Positions 5,227-64,000 of a stretch of DNA of 64,000 nt are shown piece after piece. The stretch is taken from assembly GCF_003576245.1 (NCBI RefSeq), contig NZ_QWGA01000003.1, forward strand, positions 558,001 through 622,000, given 5' to 3'. A program made the position numbers and the translations under genes. Every line of letters begins with the position of its first letter. Positions within the stretch are counted from its first letter, which is position 1. Source of the DNA: Henriciella algicola. Its GTDB lineage: Bacteria > Pseudomonadota > Alphaproteobacteria > Caulobacterales > Hyphomonadaceae. A model generated the notes under the pieces. It was not told the origin of the DNA. It searched no databases and was given only the letters and a program-made list of their open reading frames with translations.

Positions 5227-7569
5227 ATGTTCTCCATGAGTTCCAGCCCGAATCGCCGCCCATCTATCTCGGAAATGGCCGCTGCCCGTGCGCCCGTGCC
5301 AGACACGAACGCCAATTATCTGGACGGCCTGAACCCCGAACAGCGCGATGCGGTCGAGACGACAGAGGGCCCGCTCCTCGTGCTTGCAGGCGCCGGCACT
5401 GGCAAGACGCGCGTGCTGACGACCCGCCTTGCCCATATCATCGCCTCCAAACTTGCCTGGCCCAGCCAGACGCTGACGGTGACCTTCACCAACAAGGCCG
5501 CCCGCGAAATGCGTGAGCGCGCGCTGAAGCTCATCGGCGATGCAGGCGAAGGCCTTCGCTGGCTTGGCACCTTTCACTCGATCTCGGCCCAGATTCTCCG
5601 CCGCCACGCAGAGCTTGCGGGCCTGAAGTCCAGCTTCACCATCCTCGATACAGACGACGTCATCCGCCTCTGCAAACAGGTGATCGAGGCAGAGAATATC
5701 GACACCAAACGCTGGACCCCGCGCCACCTCTCCAGCCTCATCGATGGCTGGAAGAACCGCGCGCTCACCCCGGCCAAGGTGCCCAAGGACGAAGCCTGGC
5801 AGTTTGCCGACGGCAAGGCGATCCAACTTTATGAGACCTATCAGAACCGCCTGAAGGTCCTGAACGCCTGCGACTTCGGCGACCTGCTGATCCACAACAT
5901 CACCATCTTCCAGAAGAATCCCGACCTGCTGGCGGACTATCACCAGCGCTTCAAATACATCCTGGTGGACGAGTATCAGGACACAAACGTCGCCCAGTAT
6001 CTCTGGCTTCGTCTGCTCGCGCGCGGCTCGAACAATATCTGCTGCGTTGGCGATGACGACCAGTCGATCTATGGCTGGCGCGGCGCTGAGGTCGACAACA
6101 TCCTGCGCTTCGAGAAGGACTTTCCGGGCGCCAAGGTCATCCGGCTGGAGCGTAATTACCGCTCCACCAAGCACATCCTCGCTGCCGCCTCTTCCGTTAT
6201 CGACTTCAACAAGGGCCGGCTCGGCAAGACGCTCTATGTCGGTGACGGCGAACAGGGCAATCCGGACGCAGAGAAAGTCCAGGTGCGCGGCCTCTGGGAC
6301 GGCGAGGCCGAGGCCCGCCTCATCTGCGATGACATCGAAAGCTACATCAACAAGGGCGGCCAGTATGAAGACTGCGCCATCCTCGTTCGTGCCTCATGGC
6401 AGATGCGGCTCTTCGAAGAACGCCTGATCATGTTGGGCATCCCCTACCGCGTGATCGGCGGCCCGCGCTTTTTTGAGCGCGCCGAGATCCGCGATGCGCT
6501 CGCCTATCTCCGCCTCGTGCGCAGCCCCGATGACGACCTCGCCTTTGAGCGTGTCGTGAACCAGCCAAAACGCGGCGTCGGCGCCACCACGATCCAGAAG
6601 CTGCAGACCTTTGCCCGCGCCGATGGCCGCTCGCTCTTTACCCTCGTGCCGATGGTGCTGCAGACCGATGAAGTCAAAGGCCCGGCCAAGCGCGGCCTCA
6701 CCACTTTCATCGACCAGATCAATCTCTGGCGCGACCGGCTCAATAACGGCATGCCGCATCATGAACTCGCGCAGGTTATCCTGGACGAGAGCGGCTATAC
6801 CGACATGCTGCAGAAGGACCGCTCCCCGCAGTCGCAGACACGCCTCGATAACCTCAAGGAACTGATCCACGCCCTCGGCCAGTTCGACAGCCTCGCCGGC
6901 TTCCTCGAACACGTCGAACTCGTCATGGATGTCGGCGGGCAATCGTCTGGCAATGAGGTCCAGATCCTCACCCTCCACGCCGCCAAGGGTCTTGAATGGC
7001 CGATGGTCTTCCTGCCCGGCTGGGAAGAGGAAGTCTTCCCGTCCCGCCGCTCTCTGGACGAGTCCGGCATGAAGGGCCTCGAGGAAGAACGCCGCCTCGC
7101 CTATGTCGGCATCACCCGCGCACGCGAAAAATGCGCGATCAGCTTTGTCGCCAACCGCATGATCTTCGGGCGCTGGCAGTCGGTCCTGCCATCGCGCTTT
7201 GTCGACGAACTCCCGCATGACAACGTCGAGGCAAGCAGCGAAACCGGCTATTCCACCATGCCCGGCGCCGATCAGGGTTTCCAGGGCACGATTGAGGATC
7301 TGGGAGAGCGCTCCAACTACACCTCCCCGGGCTGGCGCCGCCTCAAGGAAAATGCCGGCAAAGGCTCAAAGACCGGCCCCGTCATCGATGGCAAGGCAGA
7401 ACTCATCGCAACCAGCTCCGGCAAGTCCGGCTTCAAGATCGGCCAACGCGTCCACCACGAAAAGTTCGGCTACGGCCAGGTCCTCGCCGCCGACGGCACC
7501 AAGCTACAGGTCAACTTCAAGAATGTCGGCCTCAAGAAGGTCATCTCGACCTTCGTGACCGGGGTTTGA
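5227..7569 (+). CDS. uvrD: UvrD/PcrA-type superfamily 1 DNA helicase
   Basis: 780 residues, full length for UvrD/PcrA. Helicase motifs appear in order: Walker A AGAGTGKT (about 53-60), TFTNKAAREM (Ia), VDEYQDTN (II), GDDDQSIYGWRGA (III), LERNYRST (IV), TLHAAKGLEW (V) and AYVGITRAR (VI). The C-terminal FKIGQRVHHEKFGYGQV segment is the Tudor-like domain that contacts RNA polymerase in PcrA/UvrD. It unwinds DNA in excision and mismatch repair. The ATG at 5236 is an alternative start. uvrD and pcrA cannot be told apart here. Confidence 0.95.
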   Translation: MFSMSSSPNRRPSISEMAAARAPVPDTNANYLDGLNPEQRDAVETTEGPLLVLAGAGTGKTRVLTTRLAHIIASKLAWPSQTLTVTFTNKAAREMRERALKLIGDAGEGLRWLGTFHSISAQILRRHAELAGLKSSFTILDTDDVIRLCKQVIEAENIDTKRWTPRHLSSLIDGWKNRALTPAKVPKDEAWQFADGKAIQLYETYQNRLKVLNACDFGDLLIHNITIFQKNPDLLADYHQRFKYILVDEYQDTNVAQYLWLRLLARGSNNICCVGDDDQSIYGWRGAEVDNILRFEKDFPGAKVIRLERNYRSTKHILAAASSVIDFNKGRLGKTLYVGDGEQGNPDAEKVQVRGLWDGEAEARLICDDIESYINKGGQYEDCAILVRASWQMRLFEERLIMLGIPYRVIGGPRFFERAEIRDALAYLRLVRSPDDDLAFERVVNQPKRGVGATTIQKLQTFARADGRSLFTLVPMVLQTDEVKGPAKRGLTTFIDQINLWRDRLNNGMPHHELAQVILDESGYTDMLQKDRSPQSQTRLDNLKELIHALGQFDSLAGFLEHVELVMDVGGQSSGNEVQILTLHAAKGLEWPMVFLPGWEEEVFPSRRSLDESGMKGLEEERRLAYVGITRAREKCAISFVANRMIFGRWQSVLPSRFVDELPHDNVEASSETGYSTMPGADQGFQGTIEDLGERSNYTSPGWRRLKENAGKGSKTGPVIDGKAELIATSSGKSGFKIGQRVHHEKFGYGQVLAADGTKLQVNFKNVGLKKVISTFVTGV

Positions 7570-7955
7570 TGGCCGGACGCCGTGCCGAACAATCGCTGCC
7601 GAAGGCAATCCTCGAGAAATCCAGTCTTCGAGGACTGGAATATGCTTGGCATCCGGATGACATACCAGAAGTGATAGAAGCTGCTCGTGTTGCAGGACTG
7701 AAAAGCCTTGGAGGTCAGCTTCAATTCAGACTTCCGGACGCAACTTGCGAGATCTACTGGATAGAAGTTGACCAATTTGGAACTGAAGTAGACCCGGATG
7801 AAGCAGCGCGCCGTACGCTTGCACAATTCCATGCAATTTACTCGAAAGACAGTTGGTTCAGGGAAGGGCGCACCTTCCCCGCAGTGCGCGAATACGAGAA
7901 AGCTGGGGGCAATCTCAACGCGGCAATGTGCTTCGTCTGGTACCTTGAACGCTAG
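7569..7955 (+). CDS. Hypothetical protein overlapping the helicase stop
   Basis: 128 residues, soluble, mixed charge, no signal peptide. The ATG shares its A with the helicase stop codon (TGATG), so translation is probably coupled. I do not recognise a family; the C-terminal half has an aromatic pattern (AQFHAIYSKDSWFREGRTFPAVREYEKAGG). Its codon use is visibly more AT-rich than that of the helicase, so it may have been acquired later. It is a real reading frame by length and coupling, but nothing indicates a function. Confidence 0.65.
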   Translation: MAGRRAEQSLPKAILEKSSLRGLEYAWHPDDIPEVIEAARVAGLKSLGGQLQFRLPDATCEIYWIEVDQFGTEVDPDEAARRTLAQFHAIYSKDSWFREGRTFPAVREYEKAGGNLNAAMCFVWYLER

Positions 7956-7975
7956 TTCAACAGCTCGTTTCCGAA

Positions 7976-8091
7976 GACCCCTGTGAAGACAGGGGTCCAT
8001 GGTGGACCGCCTGAAGAGAGATCACCAAGTGCCGGGGGGAGCGCTACGCGCCAGCGACGCGTCACCCTCGACGGCGCAGCCGTCTGAGGGT
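7976..8091. repeat. Two intergenic hairpins in a gene-free gap
   Basis: The 279-base gap 7956-8234 has no convincing gene. It holds a perfect 9-bp hairpin (GACCCCTGT, loop GAAG, ACAGGGGTC, 7976-7997) just after the upstream gene, and an imperfect one at 8064-8091 (ACCCTCGACGGC, loop GCA, GCCGTCTGAGGGT). Neither is followed by a clear T-run. They may be transcription-end or mRNA-stability structures, or remains of dispersed palindromic repeats. Confidence 0.5.
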
Positions 8092-8234
8092 CCAGCTTCC
8101 GCCGTAACCCCATGCGCCAGTTTCACTATCCGGAGGTGGACACCCAGATGGGCTAACGCCCATCGGGCGTGACGACCCTTGAGGTTATCCGGTATTTTTG
8201 AAAACGGCGCGGCTGCCAGCGAACTTAGCCCGCC

Positions 8235-8738
8235 CTACTCCCACCCATCCGCGAACGGACAGGTTGCCTGCAGGCCAGCTTCTTCAGGCGTGTCAGAATT
8301 GAAGATGTCGACATCGACCAGCCAGGCGCCGTCTTCCTGAAGCTTGCGCACTTCGAGGAATTTGCCTGCATCGACGCCGTATTCGCCCTCATCCAGCGGA
8401 ACGAAGACGCAGGAGCGCCCGCGCACATAGGCGGTGTCGCCGCTGCCGCCGATGTTTTCGATATCGAGCGCGATACGGTAGCCTGTCTCATTCTCGGCTT
8501 CCCATGCCGCGATGTTGTCACGTCCGGTCACGGCAGGGCCGTTTGGCGGCATCAGGATCGCGTCTGAGGTGAAGTAGGAGGCGAGCAGCTCCCAGTCATT
8601 TGCATTATAAGCCGCAACCCAGTCGGCAGAGGCTGCTTCAATGGCGCTATAATCCTGCGGCCCGAGCTCTTCCGGCAGAGTCTGGCAGCCTGCAATGGCA
8701 GCGGTGAACATGATCGCAGTGAAAGCGGCGTGTCGCAT
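8235..8738 (-). CDS. SnoaL/DUF4440-like lipoprotein
   Basis: 167 residues with a lipoprotein signal (AAIAGC, Cys about residue 18). The mature part is an NTF2-like fold: IEAASADWVAAYNANDWELLASYFTSDAILMPP is the standard first helix and strand of DUF4440/SnoaL-type proteins, followed by GRDNIAAWEAE and a final strand block. Such domains can be enzymes or ligand binders; no catalytic pair can be assigned. Likely exported and lipid-anchored. Confidence 0.85.
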   Translation of the reverse strand: MRHAAFTAIMFTAAIAGCQTLPEELGPQDYSAIEAASADWVAAYNANDWELLASYFTSDAILMPPNGPAVTGRDNIAAWEAENETGYRIALDIENIGGSGDTAYVRGRSCVFVPLDEGEYGVDAGKFLEVRKLQEDGAWLVDVDIFNSDTPEEAGLQATCPFADGWE

Positions 8739-56841: not shown

Positions 56842-57756
56842 ATGCGTCCTACACTCAGACAGCTTCAGTATCTGGTTGCGATTGCTGACACCGGAAAGTT
56901 CGGTGAAGCGGCCAAGCGCACCAATGTTAGCCAACCCAGTCTCTCGGCGCAGGTCGCCGATATGGAAGCATATCTTGGGAACGTCTTGATAGAACGGGGG
57001 CGGCACGGCGCGTTTCTCACGCCTCTGGGGGAAGAAGCCGTCCGGCGCGCGCGGATGATCCTGCGCGATGTCGAGGATCTGAAAGCGGTGCTGGCATCAG
57101 AGAATGATGCGCTGACGGGGCGGATCAGGCTCGGCGTACTTCCGACCATTGGGCCCTATTTGCTGCCCGGCGTCACCCGCCATCTGCACGCCAAATATCC
57201 GGATTTTCGACTGAGCGTGCGTGAGGAACGCACGATCGACCTTGAGGAACACCTGCATGACGGCCGTTTCGATACCGTCATCTCGACAATTGAAGACCAT
57301 GCAAACGCCGAGCACATGCCCCTTTTTGAGGAGGAGCTATGGATCTGCGCGGCGCCGGACGACCCGATCGCCCAGAGCTATGGCGACGTGAAACTGTCTG
57401 ACCTTAGAGACAGACCACTCCTCACGCTCGGCTATGGCCATCGCTTTAACCTCAAGATCCAGTCGATTGCTGAAGCAGCCGGGGCCCACGTCAGCAGTGA
57501 GTATGAAGGCACCAGTCTGGATGCAATCCGGCAAATGGCTGAGATGGGGGCCGGGGTTGCCGTCCTTCCGAGCCTTTACGCGCTGACTGAAGCAAGACGC
57601 GATCCTGACCTCGTGGTCAGGAAAATCGATGACCCGCTGGCACGACGTGAAATCTCGTTGATCTGGCGCCAAACGTCGCCGCTTCGCGATCGGCTGGTCA
57701 GGCTGGCGGAAGAGTTGAAAACAGCGGCCGTGTCCGTCCTGGTCGGCCGGCGCTGA
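56842..57756 (+). CDS. OxyR-like LysR regulator without redox cysteines
   Basis: 304 residues. N-terminal winged helix: LRQLQYLVAIADTGKFGEAAKRTNVSQPSLSAQVADMEAYLG, then the OxyR-type effector domain (GVLPTIGPYLLPGVT, about 95-110). In E. coli OxyR the peroxide-sensing Cys199 follows GH; here the aligned stretch is YGHRFNLKI (Arg201), and the protein's only Cys is in ELWICAAPDD. It cannot use the OxyR disulfide switch. It lies 604 bases upstream of the bicarbonate transporter, same strand, and may regulate it. Confidence 0.9.
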   Translation: MRPTLRQLQYLVAIADTGKFGEAAKRTNVSQPSLSAQVADMEAYLGNVLIERGRHGAFLTPLGEEAVRRARMILRDVEDLKAVLASENDALTGRIRLGVLPTIGPYLLPGVTRHLHAKYPDFRLSVREERTIDLEEHLHDGRFDTVISTIEDHANAEHMPLFEEELWICAAPDDPIAQSYGDVKLSDLRDRPLLTLGYGHRFNLKIQSIAEAAGAHVSSEYEGTSLDAIRQMAEMGAGVAVLPSLYALTEARRDPDLVVRKIDDPLARREISLIWRQTSPLRDRLVRLAEELKTAAVSVLVGRR

Positions 57757-57853: not shown

Positions 57854-58225
57854 ATGAGCTTTGCAAGAAAGCAGATAGCCCCCGCACGCGCAGTGAGGCT
57901 TGCTTACATTGCGGCGGAAAATGCCGACACGATAGAAACTGGCAACTCGAGCATCCTGAGCTCAGGTGATGAATTTTGGATGGTGGCGGAGTGGTCAAGA
58001 AGCGGAGAAAGTCTCGCTTTTCATGCTGAGTCCCTGATCAGCTGGGCGCCTGTAGAGATACTGGAACGCCCTACTCCCATCATAGATGAGACGGACCAGG
58101 CCAAGTGGCTTTGCAAATTCCGCTATTTCGGGCCAGTCAGGGATCGTGCGCGCCTTATCGAGAATGTGAAGACTGTTCTCGACTCCCTTGCCAGGTGGCA
58201 GGCCGTTCCAGCCCATAGCCTCTAG
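57854..58225 (+). CDS. Hypothetical protein
   Basis: 123 residues, soluble, no signal peptide; I do not recognise a family. AAGGAG lies 7 bases before the ATG. The sequence has a hydrophobic-aromatic centre (GDEFWMVAEWSRSGESLAFHAESLISW) and a helical C-terminus (RDRARLIENVKTVLDSLARW). It sits between the LysR gene and the bicarbonate transporter gene and may belong to that module. Confidence 0.6.
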   Translation: MSFARKQIAPARAVRLAYIAAENADTIETGNSSILSSGDEFWMVAEWSRSGESLAFHAESLISWAPVEILERPTPIIDETDQAKWLCKFRYFGPVRDRARLIENVKTVLDSLARWQAVPAHSL

Positions 58226-58360
58226 CTATCGAAACCATAACTTATTTGAAATTGTGCTTATAAATTGCCCCGTTACTTACGCTGCCGAGCTGGTTTGCCA
58301 GCAAGCGTAGACGCCGCGCGAAGTGCGGCTTTCTGACGAAAGCAAGAAAAGGCCGCAGCA

Positions 58361-59347
58361 ATGCTCGATCTGGCGCTCGCCACCCTTCTGTCCCCTGTTG
58401 TCCTGTTTTTTGTTCTGGGCTTGATCGCGGCATTGCTTCGCTCATCAATGAGCATTCCAGAAGCTTTCGCCAAAGGCCTGGCTATCTACCTCATGATGGC
58501 GATTGGCCTGAAGGGCGGCATTGCGATGTCGGAAAGTCCGGTCACTCTGGCGATGATCGGCGTATTTGCGATAGCAATCGCGCTTTCCTTTTCGCTGCCA
58601 GCAATCGCCTATGGCGCCCTGCGCGTGACAAGCAAGCTCAGCCGGACGGACGCCGCCGCAACGGCCGCGCATTATGGCTCGATCTCAATCGTGACATTCG
58701 TTGCGGCAACGCAGCTTCTGGCGTCCGCCAATATTGAGAGCTCCGGCTACATGGTGGCCGTAGCTGCCGTGATGGAAGCACCCGCAATCATCACGGCGCT
58801 CTTTCTAGCATCGCGCGGCAAACAGAAATCTGAACCTGTCGCAGGTTCCGAAAGCGGCGAGCTATTCCGAGAGGTTCTTCTGAATGCGTCCGTCGTCGTC
58901 CTCGTAGGTGCACTCATCATCGGCGCCCTTATTGGAACGGATGGCGCCGCACAGATCTCTCCGTTCTTTGTTGACCCGTTCCAGGGCGTATTGTGCCTGT
59001 TCCTTCTCGATATGGGCTTATCGGCCGGGCGCGGCCTGCGGCATGGCTGGCGGCAACTGGATGGCGCAGCGCTAGGCTTCGGCATCTACATGCCGCTCAT
59101 ATCTGCATCACTCGCAGCCGTTGCATCGATCCTTCTCGGTCTCGATACGGGCGACATGACCTTGCTCATGGTCCTGTCTGCATCGGCGTCCTACATCGCC
59201 GTCCCTGCCGCCATGCGTCTCGCGCTGCCCGAGGCAAAACCCAGCGTCTACCTAACCCTGTCGCTCGGTATTACTTTCCCATTCAACATCGCCGTCGGGA
59301 TACCTTTGTACCTGACAGTGGCACAGTGGCTCCAAGGAGGCGCGTAG
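58361..59347 (+). CDS. sbtA: SbtA-family sodium-dependent bicarbonate transporter
   Basis: 328 residues, about ten membrane helices. The N-terminal half opens with SPVVLFFVLGLIAALLRSSMSIPEAFAKGLAIYLMMAIGLKGG, the SbtA signature; AAHYGSISIVTFVAA (about 106-120) and the second-half repeat FVDPFQGVLCLFLLDMGLSAG and SASASYIAVPAAMRLALPEA are also typical. SbtA imports HCO3- with Na+ in cyanobacteria. A short soluble linker (KQKSEPVAGSESGELF) joins the halves. The PII-like gene follows 3 bases later. Confidence 0.93.
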   Translation: MLDLALATLLSPVVLFFVLGLIAALLRSSMSIPEAFAKGLAIYLMMAIGLKGGIAMSESPVTLAMIGVFAIAIALSFSLPAIAYGALRVTSKLSRTDAAATAAHYGSISIVTFVAATQLLASANIESSGYMVAVAAVMEAPAIITALFLASRGKQKSEPVAGSESGELFREVLLNASVVVLVGALIIGALIGTDGAAQISPFFVDPFQGVLCLFLLDMGLSAGRGLRHGWRQLDGAALGFGIYMPLISASLAAVASILLGLDTGDMTLLMVLSASASYIAVPAAMRLALPEAKPSVYLTLSLGITFPFNIAVGIPLYLTVAQWLQGGA

Positions 59348-59350
59348 ATC

Positions 59351-59656
59351 ATGCACGCAATGAAACGGCTGGAACTCATCATCGAGCGCATGGCCATGAA
59401 GCGCGCTGGCCGCATTCTCGAAAGTGCCGGCGTGAAGGGCTACACGGTCGTTCCCGCACTTGCGGGCTTCGGCCAGGGAACTTACTGGCAGCGCGACCGA
59501 GACATGTCGGCAAGCCAGGACATGGTGGTCATGATTGCGATCAGTCGCGAGGCCGTGATGCAAGCCGCACTAGACGAGCTACAGAAGCTTCTTGGCGCAC
59601 ATATCGGCGTCCTCAGTGTCAGCGACGTGAACGTCCTCAGGCCAGATCGTTTCTAG
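59351..59656 (+). CDS. sbtB: PII-like regulatory protein SbtB
   Basis: 101 residues, ferredoxin-like PII fold: KRLELIIERMAMKRAGRILESAGVKGYTVVPALAGFG, then the T-loop region GQGTYWQRDRDMSASQ (about 44-58) and a last strand IGVLSVSDVNVLRPDRF. It has the length and spacing of SbtB, which binds cAMP/AMP/ADP and blocks SbtA. The redox CGPxGC C-terminal loop of some cyanobacterial SbtB is not present. Gene order sbtA-sbtB with a 3-base gap supports the pair. Confidence 0.9.
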   Translation: MHAMKRLELIIERMAMKRAGRILESAGVKGYTVVPALAGFGQGTYWQRDRDMSASQDMVVMIAISREAVMQAALDELQKLLGAHIGVLSVSDVNVLRPDRF

Positions 59657-59794
59657 GGTCCTACGCCTGATACCAGGGTCTATCGATGAGCCCCACGAAT
59701 GATAGCTTATTACTATCCATGTGACAGAAAAGTTGGATTGGAAGTTATCGATCAGTTTCGCCAAATTTATCTGCGAAACAGAAGGATAACCGAA

Positions 59795-59989
59795 ATGAAC
59801 TGGCTAATGGAGATGTTTTCGGAATTCTCCGACAAAGTCATGGGTGAGAACGAACCTTTCGAGGAAAGACGGAAGTCGCATCGTCAGGAAGGCCGCAAGT
59901 TTGCGCATCCACCTGAACCTCCACCGCATTACGCGAAGAAAAACAAGAAGCAGCGGGCCGCCGACAGGTTTGCCGACTTCGACTGGTAA
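59795..59989 (+). CDS. Small charged protein in the sbtAB-nhaA cluster
   Basis: 64 residues, ending KKQRAADRFADFDW. The N-terminus is amphipathic (MNWLMEMFSEFSDKVM), the middle highly charged with a proline cluster (PPEPPPHY). An AAGGAT site is 8 bases before this ATG; an upstream ATG at 59699 would add 32 residues without a good ribosome site. Family unknown. Its place between sbtB and nhaA suggests an accessory or regulatory role in that transcript. Confidence 0.6.
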   Translation: MNWLMEMFSEFSDKVMGENEPFEERRKSHRQEGRKFAHPPEPPPHYAKKNKKQRAADRFADFDW

Positions 59990-60076
59990 TCTCTCTCCAG
60001 CACACTGAACCCTCAATCAAAGCCAGGCTGCCAAGCGCATCCTGGCTAACTTGCCCTATTGGAAGGACTTTTTGAC

Positions 60077-61303
60077 ATGTCCCTGATTGCCGCGAGGATA
60101 CAGAACTTCCTCAAACTTGAATCATCCGCCGGAATATTACTCATGATCGCCGCCCTGATGGCGTTGATTGCCAGCAACTCCATGCTGAGCGGACTTTATG
60201 GCGGTTTCCTCACGACGCCCGTTGTCGTTCAGGTTGGCGCCTTGGAAATCGCAAAACCACTCCTGCTATGGATCAATGACGGTCTGATGGCCGTGTTCTT
60301 TTTCCTGATTGGTCTGGAGATCAAGAGAGAGATCCTGGAAGGCGAGCTTTCGTCGTTTGACAAGGCGGCTCTTCCGCTCATAGCGGCGATTGGCGGCATG
60401 GCCGGGCCAGCGCTCGTCTATGTGCTCATCAACTGGTCGACACCGGAAATAATGAACGGCTGGGCTATTCCAGCGGCCACCGACATTGCTTTTGCCCTTG
60501 GTGTGCTGATGCTCCTTGGCCGGTCCGTACCGACCTCGCTCAAAGTGTTTTTGCTAGCCATCGCCATCATCGATGATCTCGGCGCAATCACAGTGATCGC
60601 CCTCTTTTACACGTCTGACTTGTCGACAACGGCGCTTGGTCTGGCTGCATTGGGCCTCGCCTCACTCATTGTCCTGAACCGGTCCGGTGTGAAGACGATC
60701 ACACCCTATGCGCTGATCGGCCTTTTCATCTGGGTATGCGTCCTGAAATCGGGTGTCCATGCAACGCTTGCCGGCGTTCTGACGGCGCTCGCCATTCCGA
60801 TCCATGGCAAGACGAAGGAGGCCCAGTCACCGCTGCACAAGCTTGAGCATGGCCTGCACCCGTGGATCGCATTAGGCGTATTGCCGATCTTCGCCTTCGC
60901 GAATGCCGGCGTGTCGCTCACTGGGCTTTCGCTGGAGGATCTTGCTGAGCCTATTACGCTTGGTGTGGCCGCAGGCCTCTTCATCGGCAAACAGATCGGC
61001 GTGTTTGGCGCGACCTTTCTTGCCGTCAAAGCGGGGATCGCGCGTCGGCCGGAAGGCACGAACTGGGCGCACATTTATGGCGTCGCATGCCTCACCGGTA
61101 TTGGCTTCACGATGAGCCTCTTCATCGGCATGCTGGCCTTCGACGCGAGAGACAGCCTCGACCAGGTCCGCATCGGCGTGCTGGCAGGCTCCTTACTCTC
61201 TGCGATCGCTGGCGTCGTTGCTCTCAAGCTGGCTGCGCGAATGACCGTTCAATCAGGCGCAACCTCCGCGACGCAAGCGGACGGGGCAAAAGCGCTCGCC
61301 TGA
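60077..61303 (+). CDS. nhaA: Na+/H+ antiporter NhaA
   Basis: 408 residues, 12 membrane helices. SSAGILLMIAALMALIASNS, INDGLMAVFFFLIGLEIKREIL, the ATDIAFALG stretch and the two adjacent Asp residues in AIAIIDDLGAI (about 164-165) that bind Na+ are all NhaA features. It exchanges internal Na+ for external H+. Placed after sbtAB, it could expel the Na+ that enters with bicarbonate. GGAAGGA precedes the ATG at 60077. Confidence 0.95.
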   Translation: MSLIAARIQNFLKLESSAGILLMIAALMALIASNSMLSGLYGGFLTTPVVVQVGALEIAKPLLLWINDGLMAVFFFLIGLEIKREILEGELSSFDKAALPLIAAIGGMAGPALVYVLINWSTPEIMNGWAIPAATDIAFALGVLMLLGRSVPTSLKVFLLAIAIIDDLGAITVIALFYTSDLSTTALGLAALGLASLIVLNRSGVKTITPYALIGLFIWVCVLKSGVHATLAGVLTALAIPIHGKTKEAQSPLHKLEHGLHPWIALGVLPIFAFANAGVSLTGLSLEDLAEPITLGVAAGLFIGKQIGVFGATFLAVKAGIARRPEGTNWAHIYGVACLTGIGFTMSLFIGMLAFDARDSLDQVRIGVLAGSLLSAIAGVVALKLAARMTVQSGATSATQADGAKALA

Positions 61304-61368
61304 AACGGGACGCTCGACGACCACTAAAGACCTGCCAGCCTTTGCTGAAGCGCTATCCGCAAAGCGAA

Positions 61369-61398
61369 ACCGCCCGGGACAACCCGGGCGGTTTTTTT
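61369..61398 (+). terminator. Rho-independent terminator after nhaA
   Basis: ACCGCCCGGG, loop ACAA, CCCGGGCGGT, followed by seven T residues; a strong hairpin 65 bases after the nhaA stop. It ends the sbtAB-nhaA transcript. Confidence 0.93.
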
Positions 61399-61446
61399 AT
61401 TGCGAGCAGCTAACGCTTTCACTGCTTCATCTGGGACACTGAGTCC

Positions 61447-62199
61447 TCAGAATTCGCGGCCGATGAAGACCTTGAACATGGCGTCATCGCTCGCATCCGT
61501 CAGACCGGCGCGAATTGCCGACTGAAGGAAAACGCCGTTCGACCAATCAAGCTTGAGAACTGGCCCGATCTGATGGGCCTGCTCATCGAGACCTCCGATG
61601 TCGCGGCTGTTGCCCCATTCACTGAAAACTTCCACGCCGAAGCGCGCTCCGGCGGCACCGAGCAAGCTTGTGTCCACCCCGCGTGTGAGCTGTGCCCGCG
61701 TTTCGATCTCAACGCCACCTTCGCTTCCCGAGCCCGTTTCAACTTCGCCAATGGCATTGGCGCGCCACTCCCAGTCGCCCGCGAACTTGTCAGTTATGGT
61801 CAGCCTGACTTCAGCTTCGTCAGGGCCGCCGCCATCGGCAAAGCCATAGGCGAACCGAAGACCGCCATTGAACCCTTCGCCTGAGCGCGCTTCTTCGCTC
61901 CACTGGAACCAGTTCTCGACCGTAAAAGCGCTGAAGTCCCAGTCCTCGTCATCCGGACGCGAAAAGGAACTGATAAGGCGAAGCTGGTACCAGCCCGTTG
62001 CCGCATAATCGTAATGCACGCGCGCGCCAGCATCACCATCATCATTGATCCCGAAGCGGGTCTCAATGGACTGCTCACCGTCGGATATGCCAGCAGAGCC
62101 AACATTACCGGTAAGGGACTGAGCTTCGGCAGCTTGCGATATGAGGAATGCGCCAACAGCAAGCATGGAGGGCGCGAATAGAAGGTTGAACTTCGACAT
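61447..62199 (-). CDS. Outer-membrane beta-barrel-like protein
   Basis: 250 residues with a signal peptide (MSKFNLLFAPSMLAVGAFLISQAAEA). The mature part is alternating hydrophobic/polar strands with WYQLRLISSFSRPDDED, DFSAFTVENWFQWSEE and a terminal DAMFKVFIGREF ending in Phe, as expected for an outer-membrane barrel. No domain family is certain. ATG at 62199 is preferred; the TTG 21 bases upstream lies in the terminator side. It lies between nhaA and the carbonic-anhydrase-like gene. Confidence 0.75.
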   Translation of the reverse strand: MSKFNLLFAPSMLAVGAFLISQAAEAQSLTGNVGSAGISDGEQSIETRFGINDDGDAGARVHYDYAATGWYQLRLISSFSRPDDEDWDFSAFTVENWFQWSEEARSGEGFNGGLRFAYGFADGGGPDEAEVRLTITDKFAGDWEWRANAIGEVETGSGSEGGVEIETRAQLTRGVDTSLLGAAGARFGVEVFSEWGNSRDIGGLDEQAHQIGPVLKLDWSNGVFLQSAIRAGLTDASDDAMFKVFIGREF

Positions 62200-62218
62200 T
62201 TCAGATTTTGACCTCAAC

Positions 62219-62265
62219 AAAAAAGGCGCGCCAGTGTGCGAGTGAGGGGAACACTCTGGCGCGCC
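62219..62265 (-). terminator. Rho-independent terminator
   Basis: GGCGCGCCAGAGTGT and ACACTGGCGCGCC form a long stem (13-nt loop) followed by TTTTTT on the minus strand. It ends the transcript of the carbonic-anhydrase-like gene at 62292, 27 bases after its stop. Confidence 0.88.
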
Positions 62266-62291
62266 GAGTTCTCAGGGATGAAAGGTGCTAA

Positions 62292-62870
62292 TTATTCTGG
62301 AGCATATGGCAGTGAGGAATGGTGAAGAACGATCTTCAGATCGCCCTCATTGTCGCGCACATAGCCGAAGCTGTACTCAACTTTCACTTCCTCACCGCTG
62401 GTACGGGTGAAGTAGTAGTTGCCCATGGCCATCGCGCTGTCGGAGTCGACGAAGGTTGCCTCATTCTCCCAGCGCACATCGGTGTAAGGGGCGATCGCAA
62501 ATCCATTGTCCTCGTCGATAGAGCCACCAACGAAGTAGGACAGTGCACCATCAAAGTCGCCGCGGAACTGTTCCTCGGCCGCGAGGGTCGGCTTGAAGAG
62601 GACCGGGTGCGAGCCGTAGGCATAAAAACGCTCAATGTGCGCTTCAGCGGCTTCGGTGTAGTCGTCGCCCTCCGAGAAAGCTTTGCCGATGGTAACGATA
62701 CCCTCGCCCCAGGCCTGTTGCGCTTCGGCAACGTCAGCCTTCGTAATCGGTGCGGCAGAAGCCGTTGAAGCGCTCGAGCTGATTGCCTGGGTCTGAGCGC
62801 AAGCAGGGAAGGCAATTGCCAGCGGAGCTGCGATAAGCGCGGTCTTCGGGATTGATTTAATCATGGTCAT
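62292..62870 (-). CDS. Secreted NTF2-like protein, probable iota-class carbonic anhydrase
   Basis: 192 residues. A signal peptide (IPKTALIAAPLAIAFPACAQ) gives a periplasmic protein of about 165 residues. The NTF2-like domain has QQAWGEGIVTIGKAF, VLFKPTLAAEEQFRG, ALSYFVGG, MAMGNYYFT and ends VLHHSSLPYAPE. An HHSS motif in this place is the mark of the COG4337 iota-class carbonic anhydrases; such proteins are often misnamed phosphoribosyl-AMP cyclohydrolase. It would hydrate CO2 beside the SbtA transporter. ATG at 62870 follows AAGG. Activity not proven here. Confidence 0.8.
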   Translation of the reverse strand: MTMIKSIPKTALIAAPLAIAFPACAQTQAISSSASTASAAPITKADVAEAQQAWGEGIVTIGKAFSEGDDYTEAAEAHIERFYAYGSHPVLFKPTLAAEEQFRGDFDGALSYFVGGSIDEDNGFAIAPYTDVRWENEATFVDSDSAMAMGNYYFTRTSGEEVKVEYSFGYVRDNEGDLKIVLHHSSLPYAPE

Positions 62871-63052
62871 TACTCGCCTTTTGTTTCTGACGGCGCACGG
62901 CCCATGCCGTTGCTGCCGATCTCTGGCGGGCTTCATTGCCCGTGGCGAAGAAATGGCTTTTTGGACCTTCGTTGAATTCGGCTAGGTAGCAGGTCTCGCG
63001 GCCTAGGCCGAATGGCCTATGCGTTTGCGCCAGGCCGACCTAGATTACCCGG

Positions 63053-64000
63053 GTGTCCAAGCAGACTTCATCTTTCTCCGGCCAACCTGAAACAGTTGCC
63101 GAAATGCGAGACCTATACAGGTCAGCCGAGGCTCGGGCCGCCCGTCTGCGACTGTTGGTCGAAGCGAGCAGGGACCTGTCAGCGGCAGAGGCCAGTACGC
63201 TGTCGGATACGCTTCAGCAAAGCGCGATGCGCGCCGCTCATTTCGCAGGCAGCCGTGAAGGTAAAGTGTCGGATGACCTTGACGCAGGGGGCATTGCCCT
63301 CATTGCACCGGGCACTACAGATGAGAGGGTCGGCACGCTTTGTCTGTCAGAGCTCGAGAGCCTTGATGCGCTCGCCGACGAAGAAGACCGCCAGGCCCTT
63401 GCTCTTTTATGTCAGTTGATGGCGTCCGCGATCCAACGCGTTGCCAAGCAGCAGGAGAATGACGTTCTGCTGGACGCTGTACAGGAGCGAGAGAGACGTC
63501 TGGAGCATGTGATCGGCAATCTGTTCAATGCGCAGGAAGAGGAACGTCGCCGGGTGTCGAGAGACCTGCATGACGGTGTCGCGCAGACGGCAGGCGCCCT
63601 GTTTCGCCGCCTCGAGGCCGTTCCAACCAGTGAAGCAATTTCTCCCGATGATCGCTCTCAACTGATTTCAATGTCGCAGGGTCTCATACGCGAACTTCGT
63701 GCCGTGATCGCAGGACTAAGGCCGACTGCGCTAGACGATCTTGGTCTGGCCTCCGCGTTAAAGGTGATGAGTGACCAGATGAGAGGTGAGGGCTTCGACA
63801 TTTCCGTCGAGACCAGTTCTGACCATGATTGGCCGACCGGCCTCACAACGGCCTATTATCGGATCGCCCAAGAAGCCTTGATGAATGTCCGCAAGCATGC
63901 TGGCGGTGCGTGCCGGGTAGATATCACACTGAAGTCGGATCCCGCTGACGGACGCTGGACCATGACCGTCCGCGATTATGGCATAGGCCTGAAAAAGGGC
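63053..64000 (+). CDS. NarL-type sensor histidine kinase, partial
   Basis: At least 316 residues; the frame is open at the window end. A GAF-like N-terminal region (about 20-145) includes GTLCLSELESLDALADEEDRQALALL. HisKA_3 follows with the phosphoacceptor His in EEERRRVSRDLHDGVAQ (about 165-181), then IRELRAVIAGLRPTALDDLGLASAL, and the ATPase domain opens at YYRIAQEALMNVRKHAGG. No membrane segment is seen, so it may be cytoplasmic. Start is the GTG at 63053 after an in-frame TAG at 63041; ATG 63104 is the alternative. Its response regulator should lie beyond the window. Confidence 0.88.
   Translation, partial: MSKQTSSFSGQPETVAEMRDLYRSAEARAARLRLLVEASRDLSAAEASTLSDTLQQSAMRAAHFAGSREGKVSDDLDAGGIALIAPGTTDERVGTLCLSELESLDALADEEDRQALALLCQLMASAIQRVAKQQENDVLLDAVQERERRLEHVIGNLFNAQEEERRRVSRDLHDGVAQTAGALFRRLEAVPTSEAISPDDRSQLISMSQGLIRELRAVIAGLRPTALDDLGLASALKVMSDQMRGEGFDISVETSSDHDWPTGLTTAYYRIAQEALMNVRKHAGGACRVDITLKSDPADGRWTMTVRDYGIGLKKG

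What the first reader, a model, noticed from the sequence alone, without database searches (positions are those of the whole stretch)
58361..62870. Inorganic-carbon uptake module in a heterotroph-like genome
SbtA and SbtB genes (58361-59656) are followed by a small unknown gene, nhaA, an outer-membrane-like barrel gene and a periplasmic carbonic-anhydrase-like gene with an HHSS motif. In cyanobacteria SbtA takes up HCO3- with Na+ under control of SbtB; NhaA would expel the Na+, and the periplasmic enzyme would convert CO2 to HCO3- for SbtA. No Rubisco or carboxysome genes are in the window, so the bicarbonate may feed carboxylases of central metabolism at low CO2. The gene identities are read from motifs; the joint role is inferred from clustering.
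Basis: partly seen in the sequence, partly recalled or inferred. Interest (0 to 1): 0.78.

Follow-up and report, generated by a model that had tools for sequence, protein, structure and literature searches.

The report
Bicarbonate pump beside swappable carbonic anhydrases
A bacterium without the carbon-fixing enzyme RuBisCO carries a predicted, regulated bicarbonate pump near an apparently exported carbonic anhydrase, a sodium-proton exchanger and a porin-like barrel, and some relatives keep parts of this layout while using a different, unrelated kind of carbonic anhydrase.

Summary
The gene calls hold up, except the small ORF at 59699-59989, which relatives do not support. SbtA is an Sbt_1 protein of a divergent type. 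Its partner is PII-like, closer to 5d4n than to SbtB. The "carbonic-anhydrase-like" gene is iota-class carbonic anhydrase (CA) with a signal-like N-terminus. The barrel is predicted OmpG-like.

RuBisCO is absent from this genome and all 105 searched in its family (Hyphomonadaceae). Neighbourhoods support a CA link: within about 6 kb of SbtA, family genomes carry iota-CA (8), beta-CA (4), delta-CA (2) or an SgcJ/EcaC-type gene (1): 15 of 33 SbtA genomes. In 37 of 80 named loci a same-strand beta-CA lies within 1 kb.

NhaA follows the CA and LysR as much as SbtA. Two same-genus genomes have the collinear locus without SbtA-PII; a third has NhaA with delta-CA; four genomes of another genus have LysR-iotaCA-NhaA.

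Best reading: a LysR-linked locus coupling CO2-HCO3- interconversion, Na+-driven HCO3- import and Na+/H+ exchange in a heterotroph. Transport and CO2 dependence are untested. New variant of a known kind.

The parts
56842..57756 (+). LysR-type regulator, OxyR-like but without the OxyR peroxidatic cysteine; recurrent neighbour of SbtA, NhaA and CA genes
   Evidence: Pfam LysR; best NCBIfam OxyR at 197.6 bits against a cut-off of 329; Arg/Lys/His at the place aligned to a Cys of 6g1b in the window and 22 of 22 relatives read
57854..58225 (+). orf123, small conserved protein of no known family (motif HxESLISWxPxE...CxFRYFGP)
   Evidence: found in 6 genomes of the family loci examined, with this LysR within 4 kb in all 6; no family over cut-off
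58201..59782 (.). SbtA-PII cassette, absent from the otherwise collinear locus of two same-genus genomes (about 170 unaligned bases there instead)
   Evidence: blastn of L124 against G019 and G014: collinear up to L124:4201 and again from 5784
58361..59347 (+). sbtA, divergent Sbt_1-family predicted bicarbonate transporter
   Evidence: tree
59351..59656 (+). PII-like regulator beside sbtA (5d4n-like; no cysteine, so no redox R-loop)
60059..61303 (+). nhaA, Na+/H+ antiporter (a later ATG at 60077 is a possible start)
61366..61395 (+). terminator-like hairpin between nhaA and the converging barrel gene
   Evidence: 13-pair stem with T tail; one of 11 found against 6.4 expected
61447..62220 (-). 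outer-membrane barrel, OmpG-like porin fold predicted
62292..62936 (-). iota-class carbonic anhydrase with hydrophobic signal-like N-terminus; likely start at 62870
63053..64000 (+). histidine kinase (HisKA_3), cut by the window end; beside iota-CA and barrel in 8 genomes

Best explanation
The locus is a LysR-linked inorganic-carbon and Na+/H+ exchange system in a bacterium without RuBisCO. Proposed flow: CO2 and HCO3- cross the outer membrane through the OmpG-like barrel (inferred); the exported iota-CA equilibrates them in the periplasm (enzyme class shown by homology, export inferred); SbtA imports HCO3- with Na+, gated by its PII-like partner (inferred from family); NhaA returns Na+ in exchange for H+, which periplasmic CO2 hydration also supplies (inferred). 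Imported HCO3- serves carboxylases other than RuBisCO and cytoplasmic pH (inferred). SbtA-PII is an optional cassette on a LysR-CA-NhaA core. CAs of unrelated class stand in this neighbourhood in different relatives, which argues that CA activity itself is what selection keeps there.
For: Gene families. CAs of four kinds within about 6 kb of SbtA in the family: iota 8 genomes (one of them the signal-less type), beta 4, delta 2, SgcJ/EcaC type 1 (beside SbtA without PII), together 15 of 33 SbtA genomes. G061 has LysR-iotaCA-SbtA-PII and G049 has SbtA-PII-deltaCA-barrel, each on one strand. Same-strand beta-CA within 1 kb of SbtA in 37 of 80 named loci, in two gene orders. Collinear locus with and without SbtA-PII; similar core with delta-CA in G009. 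In the family loci examined, LysR is within 4 kb of this NhaA in 9 of 9 genomes and a CA within 4 kb of the barrel in 18 of 18 (15 iota, 3 delta); these loci were chosen around SbtA or CA genes, so the 18 of 18 is partly by choice. No RuBisCO in 105 genomes.
Against: This SbtA is far from the tested cyanobacterial protein (78.6 bits), whereas another SbtA in the same family, in G088, scores 405.5 bits; a weakly similar SbtA-like protein (24% identity) is suspected of poor function (PMC11890772, passages). The genome keeps a beta-CA elsewhere, which would dissipate an imported HCO3- pool. 18 of 33 SbtA genomes have no CA recognised near SbtA (some at contig ends). Of family genomes with SbtA and a given CA, the two are close in 8 of 21 (iota), 4 of 27 (beta) and 2 of 10 (delta). 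Close iota-CA and SbtA is rare outside the family: 2 of 10 class genomes with both, one of them the window. Fisher values ignore shared ancestry. Export was judged by a home-made hydrophobicity score, not a signal-peptide predictor.
Confidence: 0.55

Rival explanations
1. Alkaline-pH and Na+ homeostasis first: LysR, exported CA and NhaA form a proton-handling unit in which periplasmic CO2 hydration supplies H+ to NhaA, and SbtA-PII is a later addition with its own role.
For: LysR-iotaCA-NhaA without SbtA in G079, G081, G082 and G085; NhaA with barrel and CA without SbtA in G009, G014 and G019.
Against: In 13 other family genomes LysR sits with SbtA-PII and no NhaA (LysR-SbtA in 15, NhaA in 2 of these); G061 has LysR-iotaCA-SbtA-PII.
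Confidence: 0.3
2. Two neighbouring but independent units: LysR-orf123-SbtA-PII-NhaA on one strand, and CA-barrel with its two-component system on the other, close by chance or shared inheritance.
For: Opposite strands with a terminator-like hairpin between; CA-barrel occurs without LysR, NhaA or SbtA in the loci of G060, G069, G077 and G094.
Against: SbtA-iotaCA closeness recurs in different arrangements in 8 of 21 genomes with both, and CAs of other classes occur beside SbtA.
Confidence: 0.2
3. This SbtA type carries another anion and is not a bicarbonate transporter.
For: Only 78.6 bits to Synechocystis SbtA, against 405.5 for the G088 protein. [quoted passage not shown]
Against: Repeated pairing with carbonic anhydrases and a PII-like protein.
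Confidence: 0.12

Closest known systems
Cyanobacterial SbtA-SbtB
   Same: Sbt_1 transporter followed by a PII-like gene
   Different: Divergent SbtA; PII-like protein nearer 5d4n than SbtB and without cysteines, so no redox R-loop; no RuBisCO in the genome
PII-like protein of the 5d4n group (recalled as carboxysome-associated CPII; the PDB labels it P-II)
   Same: Best solved relative of the window's PII-like protein (1.7e-14 by profile)
   Different: No RuBisCO in this genome; ligand binding untested
Iota carbonic anhydrases with solved structures 7c5v and 7c5x
   Same: Domain match with KPT, the SYFVG Tyr and HHSS kept; motif and catalytic residues named in PMC8425729 (passages)
   Different: Exported-type N-terminus and a place near SbtA, NhaA and a porin-like barrel
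SulP (predicted bicarbonate transporter) next to beta-CA (can2-sulP of Acidithiobacillus)
   Same: Predicted bicarbonate-transporter and CA gene pair (PMC6458275, passages)
   Different: Other transporter family, in an autotroph
SBT-family permease in SAR11 IIIa.3 and LD12
   Same: Sbt gene in a heterotroph, beside a remark on anaplerotic use of inorganic carbon (PMC10030771, passages)
   Different: No CA-NhaA-porin cluster mentioned in the passages read

Membership tests
SbtA (Sbt_1, Na+-dependent bicarbonate transporter) | Full-length Sbt_1 domain above cut-off | tested here: met
   369.8 bits against a cut-off of 27, profile 1-308 of 308
SbtA (Sbt_1, Na+-dependent bicarbonate transporter) | Na+-dependent HCO3- transport | not testable with these tools
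   needs uptake assay
SbtB | PII-like gene beside sbtA | tested here: met
   window genes 3 bases apart; PII within 4 kb of SbtA in 31 of 32 family genomes examined (G051 not fetched)
SbtB | C-terminal redox-sensitive R-loop forming a disulphide (PMC10991534, abstract and passages) | tested here: not met
   window protein ends RPDRF and has no cysteine; so filed as PII-like, not SbtB
Iota-class carbonic anhydrase | Sequence match to solved iota-CA with HHSS and catalytic Thr, Tyr and Ser | tested here: met
   (residues read off the printed alignment by eye)
Iota-class carbonic anhydrase | CO2 hydration activity | not testable with these tools
   needs assay
NCBIfam NF047901 equivalog (metal-independent CA) | Score over the curated cut-off | tested here: not met
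   117.5 against 350 bits; relative, not equivalog
NhaA | NhaA equivalog model over cut-off | tested here: met
   TIGR00773 485.2 bits against 254
OxyR | Peroxidatic and resolving cysteines | tested here: not met
   one Cys only, at 169; Arg aligned to the Cys of 6g1b
OmpG-like porin | Monomeric porin barrel fold | tested here: inconclusive
Cyanobacterial-type CO2-concentrating mechanism | RuBisCO | tested here: not met
   no PF00016 match in own genome or 105 family genomes

The most novel reading that the evidence does not exclude
A modular inorganic-carbon system of RuBisCO-less bacteria: a LysR derived from an OxyR-like ancestor, with a basic residue where the peroxidatic cysteine was, senses CO2/HCO3- and controls a periplasmic carbonic anhydrase of exchangeable class, its own outer-membrane porin, NhaA and an optional SbtA-PII cassette, working as a bacterial carbonic-anhydrase/Na+-H+ exchange metabolon.
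Probability: 0.22. Interest if true: 0.8.

Novelty: new variant of a known kind. Interest (0 to 1): 0.6.

Why it matters
Iota-class carbonic anhydrases were described only in recent years (PMC8425729, passages) and I saw no physiological role for them in heterotrophic bacteria in what I read. Here one has a concrete genetic context with a predicted bicarbonate transporter, an Na+/H+ antiporter and a porin-like barrel, in bacteria without RuBisCO. CAs of different class in comparable neighbourhoods, and the natural presence or absence of the SbtA-PII cassette in close relatives, give ready comparisons for testing why such a bacterium would import bicarbonate.

Tried and rejected
Rejected: NhaA being unlinked to this system (my first reading from SbtA loci alone), overturned by CA-centred loci. 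Rejected: the small ORF 59699-59989 as a conserved gene. Rejected: calling the regulator OxyR or the PII-like protein SbtB. Weak result: SbtA presence against beta-CA absence in the family is not significant (6 of 12 beta-lacking genomes have SbtA against 27 of 93 others, p 0.13). The orf123 model had low confidence (mean pLDDT 53.9) and was not searched. Weak tblastn matches of SbtA to NhaA were taken as membrane-protein composition, without a test. Alpha-CA (27 of 105 genomes) lies on other contigs than SbtA in the four genomes that have both. Gamma-CA was not searched because its Pfam model is too general. Paper searches (open-licence papers only) gave no listing whose title or printed abstract start describes this cluster; apart from eight papers seen in passages, papers were seen as listings only.
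Full report
OBSERVATION. The window lies at G000:C5:558001-622000 of a 3.2 Mb genome in 8 contigs. Relatives place it in the Hyphomonadaceae: contigs of family genomes reappear with the same length under named records, for example G023:C3 (134593 bases) as a Hyphomonadaceae MAG and G060:C9 (232529) as a Hyphomonas MAG. The genus was not named by any search. The genes on the + strand are LysR (56842), orf123 (57854), SbtA (58361), PII-like (59351) and NhaA (60059); on the - strand the barrel (61447) and iota-CA (62292); then a histidine kinase from 63053 on the + strand. SbtA and the PII-like gene are 3 bases apart. A terminator-like hairpin follows NhaA at 61366-61395 (11 such sites found, 6.4 expected).

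CO-OCCURRENCE. In 105 family genomes SbtA is in 33, iota-CA in 30 and both in 21 (Fisher 2e-7); within the window's genus 7 of 29 have both (10 and 10 singly; p 0.006). In 385 class genomes the counts are 73, 21 and 10 (p 0.002). These tests ignore relatedness. In 8 of the 21 family genomes the two genes lie within about 6 kb (places; in several others the two are on different contigs of draft genomes). In the class sample 2 of 10 are close: the window and G240, where the SbtA is of the G088 type (65% to it).

NEIGHBOURS OF SbtA. Of 33 SbtA genomes in the family, 15 have a recognised CA within about 6 kb: iota in 8 (G000, G005, G041, G050, G056, G061, G067, and G015 with the signal-less type), beta in 4 (G022, G023, G025, G088), delta in 2 (G049, G065), and an SgcJ/EcaC-type gene in 1 (G101, where no PII was found; CaMKII_AD 4.1e-8, TIGR02246 over cut-off). 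Most bacterial homologues of the first iota-CA are annotated as SgcJ/EcaC (PMC8425729, passages), but the G101 protein's activity is only inferred. The delta-CA assignments are firm (PF10563, 2.6e-66 and 3.8e-64). The other 18 show no recognised CA nearby; some end at contig edges, and G051 was not fetched. Put the other way, delta-CA is close in 2 of 10 and beta-CA in 4 of 27 family genomes that have it together with SbtA. In a tree of 47 SbtA proteins the genomes with an adjacent beta-CA (G022, G023, G025) fall among same-genus genomes without one (G011, G017; G015, G016; G028), and the window's SbtA groups with G065 and G049 and two Robiginitomaculaceae rather than with those same-genus copies (86/90 support).

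NAMED LOCI. At least five of the 80 (L147, L148, L151, L154, L155) are contigs of family genomes already counted above. So pairing this SbtA type with a CA is widespread, mostly in Alphaproteobacteria; what is special here is the exported iota-CA, barrel and NhaA.

THE LOCUS IN CLOSE RELATIVES. G005 has the same cluster. G014 and G019 have LysR-orf123-NhaA-barrel-iotaCA-kinase without SbtA-PII; blastn is collinear on both sides of a segment equal to window 58201-59782, in place of which they have about 170 unaligned bases. G009 has LysR-orf123-NhaA-deltaCA-barrel: a similar core with a CA of another class. G079, G081, G082 and G085 have LysR-iotaCA-NhaA. NhaA of this type is in 9 family genomes of the loci examined, with LysR within 4 kb in 9 and a CA within 4 kb in 9 (8 iota, 1 delta). 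The loci were fetched around SbtA or CA genes and whole genomes were not searched for NhaA, so the second count is partly by choice. In 6 of 80 named loci NhaA precedes SbtA on the same strand, with divergent LysR visible in 5; in three of these, including Hellea and Algimonas, a permease lies between.

COMPARTMENT OF THE CA. The 50 genomes with an iota-CA match (30 family and 21 class, the own genome shared) were sorted by a home-made N-terminal hydrophobicity score; G051, cut by a contig end, was set aside, and second copies in G050, G068, G094 and G252 were not scored. Of 26 with a signal-less iota-CA (eight of which also have an exported one), 24 have no beta-CA match, G033 has only a stop-interrupted beta-CA fragment, and G082 has an intact beta-CA. 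Of 23 with exported-type iota-CA only, 22 have a beta-CA and G346 does not (beta-CA lists). The short form therefore behaves as a substitute for the cytoplasmic beta-CA and the exported form as an addition to it. The window's gene is of the exported form, and its genome has one beta-CA elsewhere. This supports a periplasmic role, on comparative grounds only.

REGULATOR. The LysR is OxyR-like, but its one cysteine is at residue 169. At the place aligned to a cysteine of 6g1b (a peroxide-activator entry) it has Arg, and 22 of 22 relatives read there have Arg, Lys or His. That this is OxyR's peroxidatic cysteine is recalled. It should not be able to use OxyR's disulphide switch; that it senses an anion such as bicarbonate is speculation.

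MECHANISM AND WEIGHT. Shown: the gene families, the recurrent proximity, the presence/absence of the cassette, CAs of different class in comparable places, the lack of RuBisCO in 105 genomes. Inferred: substrates, directions, export and joint regulation. The HCO3- sink is also inferred; carboxylases were not searched for. A beta-CA in the cytoplasm argues against a large HCO3- pool as in cyanobacteria, so supply to carboxylases and pH balance are more likely than concentration. A general scheme of periplasmic CA plus bicarbonate transporter in Gram-negative bacteria is already in print (PMC8425729, passages), an Sbt permease in heterotrophic SAR11 has been noted (PMC10030771, passages), and inorganic-carbon transporter and CA genes are called widespread in heterotrophs as well as autotrophs (PMC10880623, passages). 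What I did not find in the searches named under Tried and rejected is this cluster, its exchangeable CA or its NhaA-barrel core.

Noticed in passing
L032, L092, L113, L139, L224-L232 and other loci: Signal-less iota-CAs and beta-CA nearly exclude each other: 24 of 26 genomes with the short form have no beta-CA match, one more has only a stop-interrupted fragment, one (G082) has both.
   Followed up: partly
L045:5221-5391 (G078): A C-terminal beta-CA fragment of about 57 codons lies directly upstream of SbtA in a genome that has no beta-CA over threshold but a signal-less iota-CA.
   Followed up: partly
L144, L146, L149, L152: A permease of about 700 aa (AA_permease and TrkA_C domains tested in L146 only; the others alike by eye) sits between NhaA and SbtA, or just after PII in L152.
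   Followed up: no
L060 (G088) and L114 (G240): A second SbtA type close to the Synechocystis protein (405.5 bits) occurs too: as a second SbtA in G088, and in G240 with a beta-CA and an iota-CA within about 8 kb.
   Followed up: partly
window 57854-58225: orf123, a small conserved protein with motif HxESLISWxPxE...CxFRYFGP, matches no family over cut-off and accompanies this LysR in all 6 genomes where it was seen.
   Followed up: partly
window 63053 onward; L041, L054, L059, L051, L052: Sensor-kinase and regulator-like genes lie beside the iota-CA and barrel: the window's kinase type in 8 genomes, another kinase-like gene with a response-regulator-like gene (by eye) in G050 and G067.
   Followed up: no
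L061, about 7308-8275 (G077): SbtA is split over two reading frames in this genome; left as it is.
   Followed up: no
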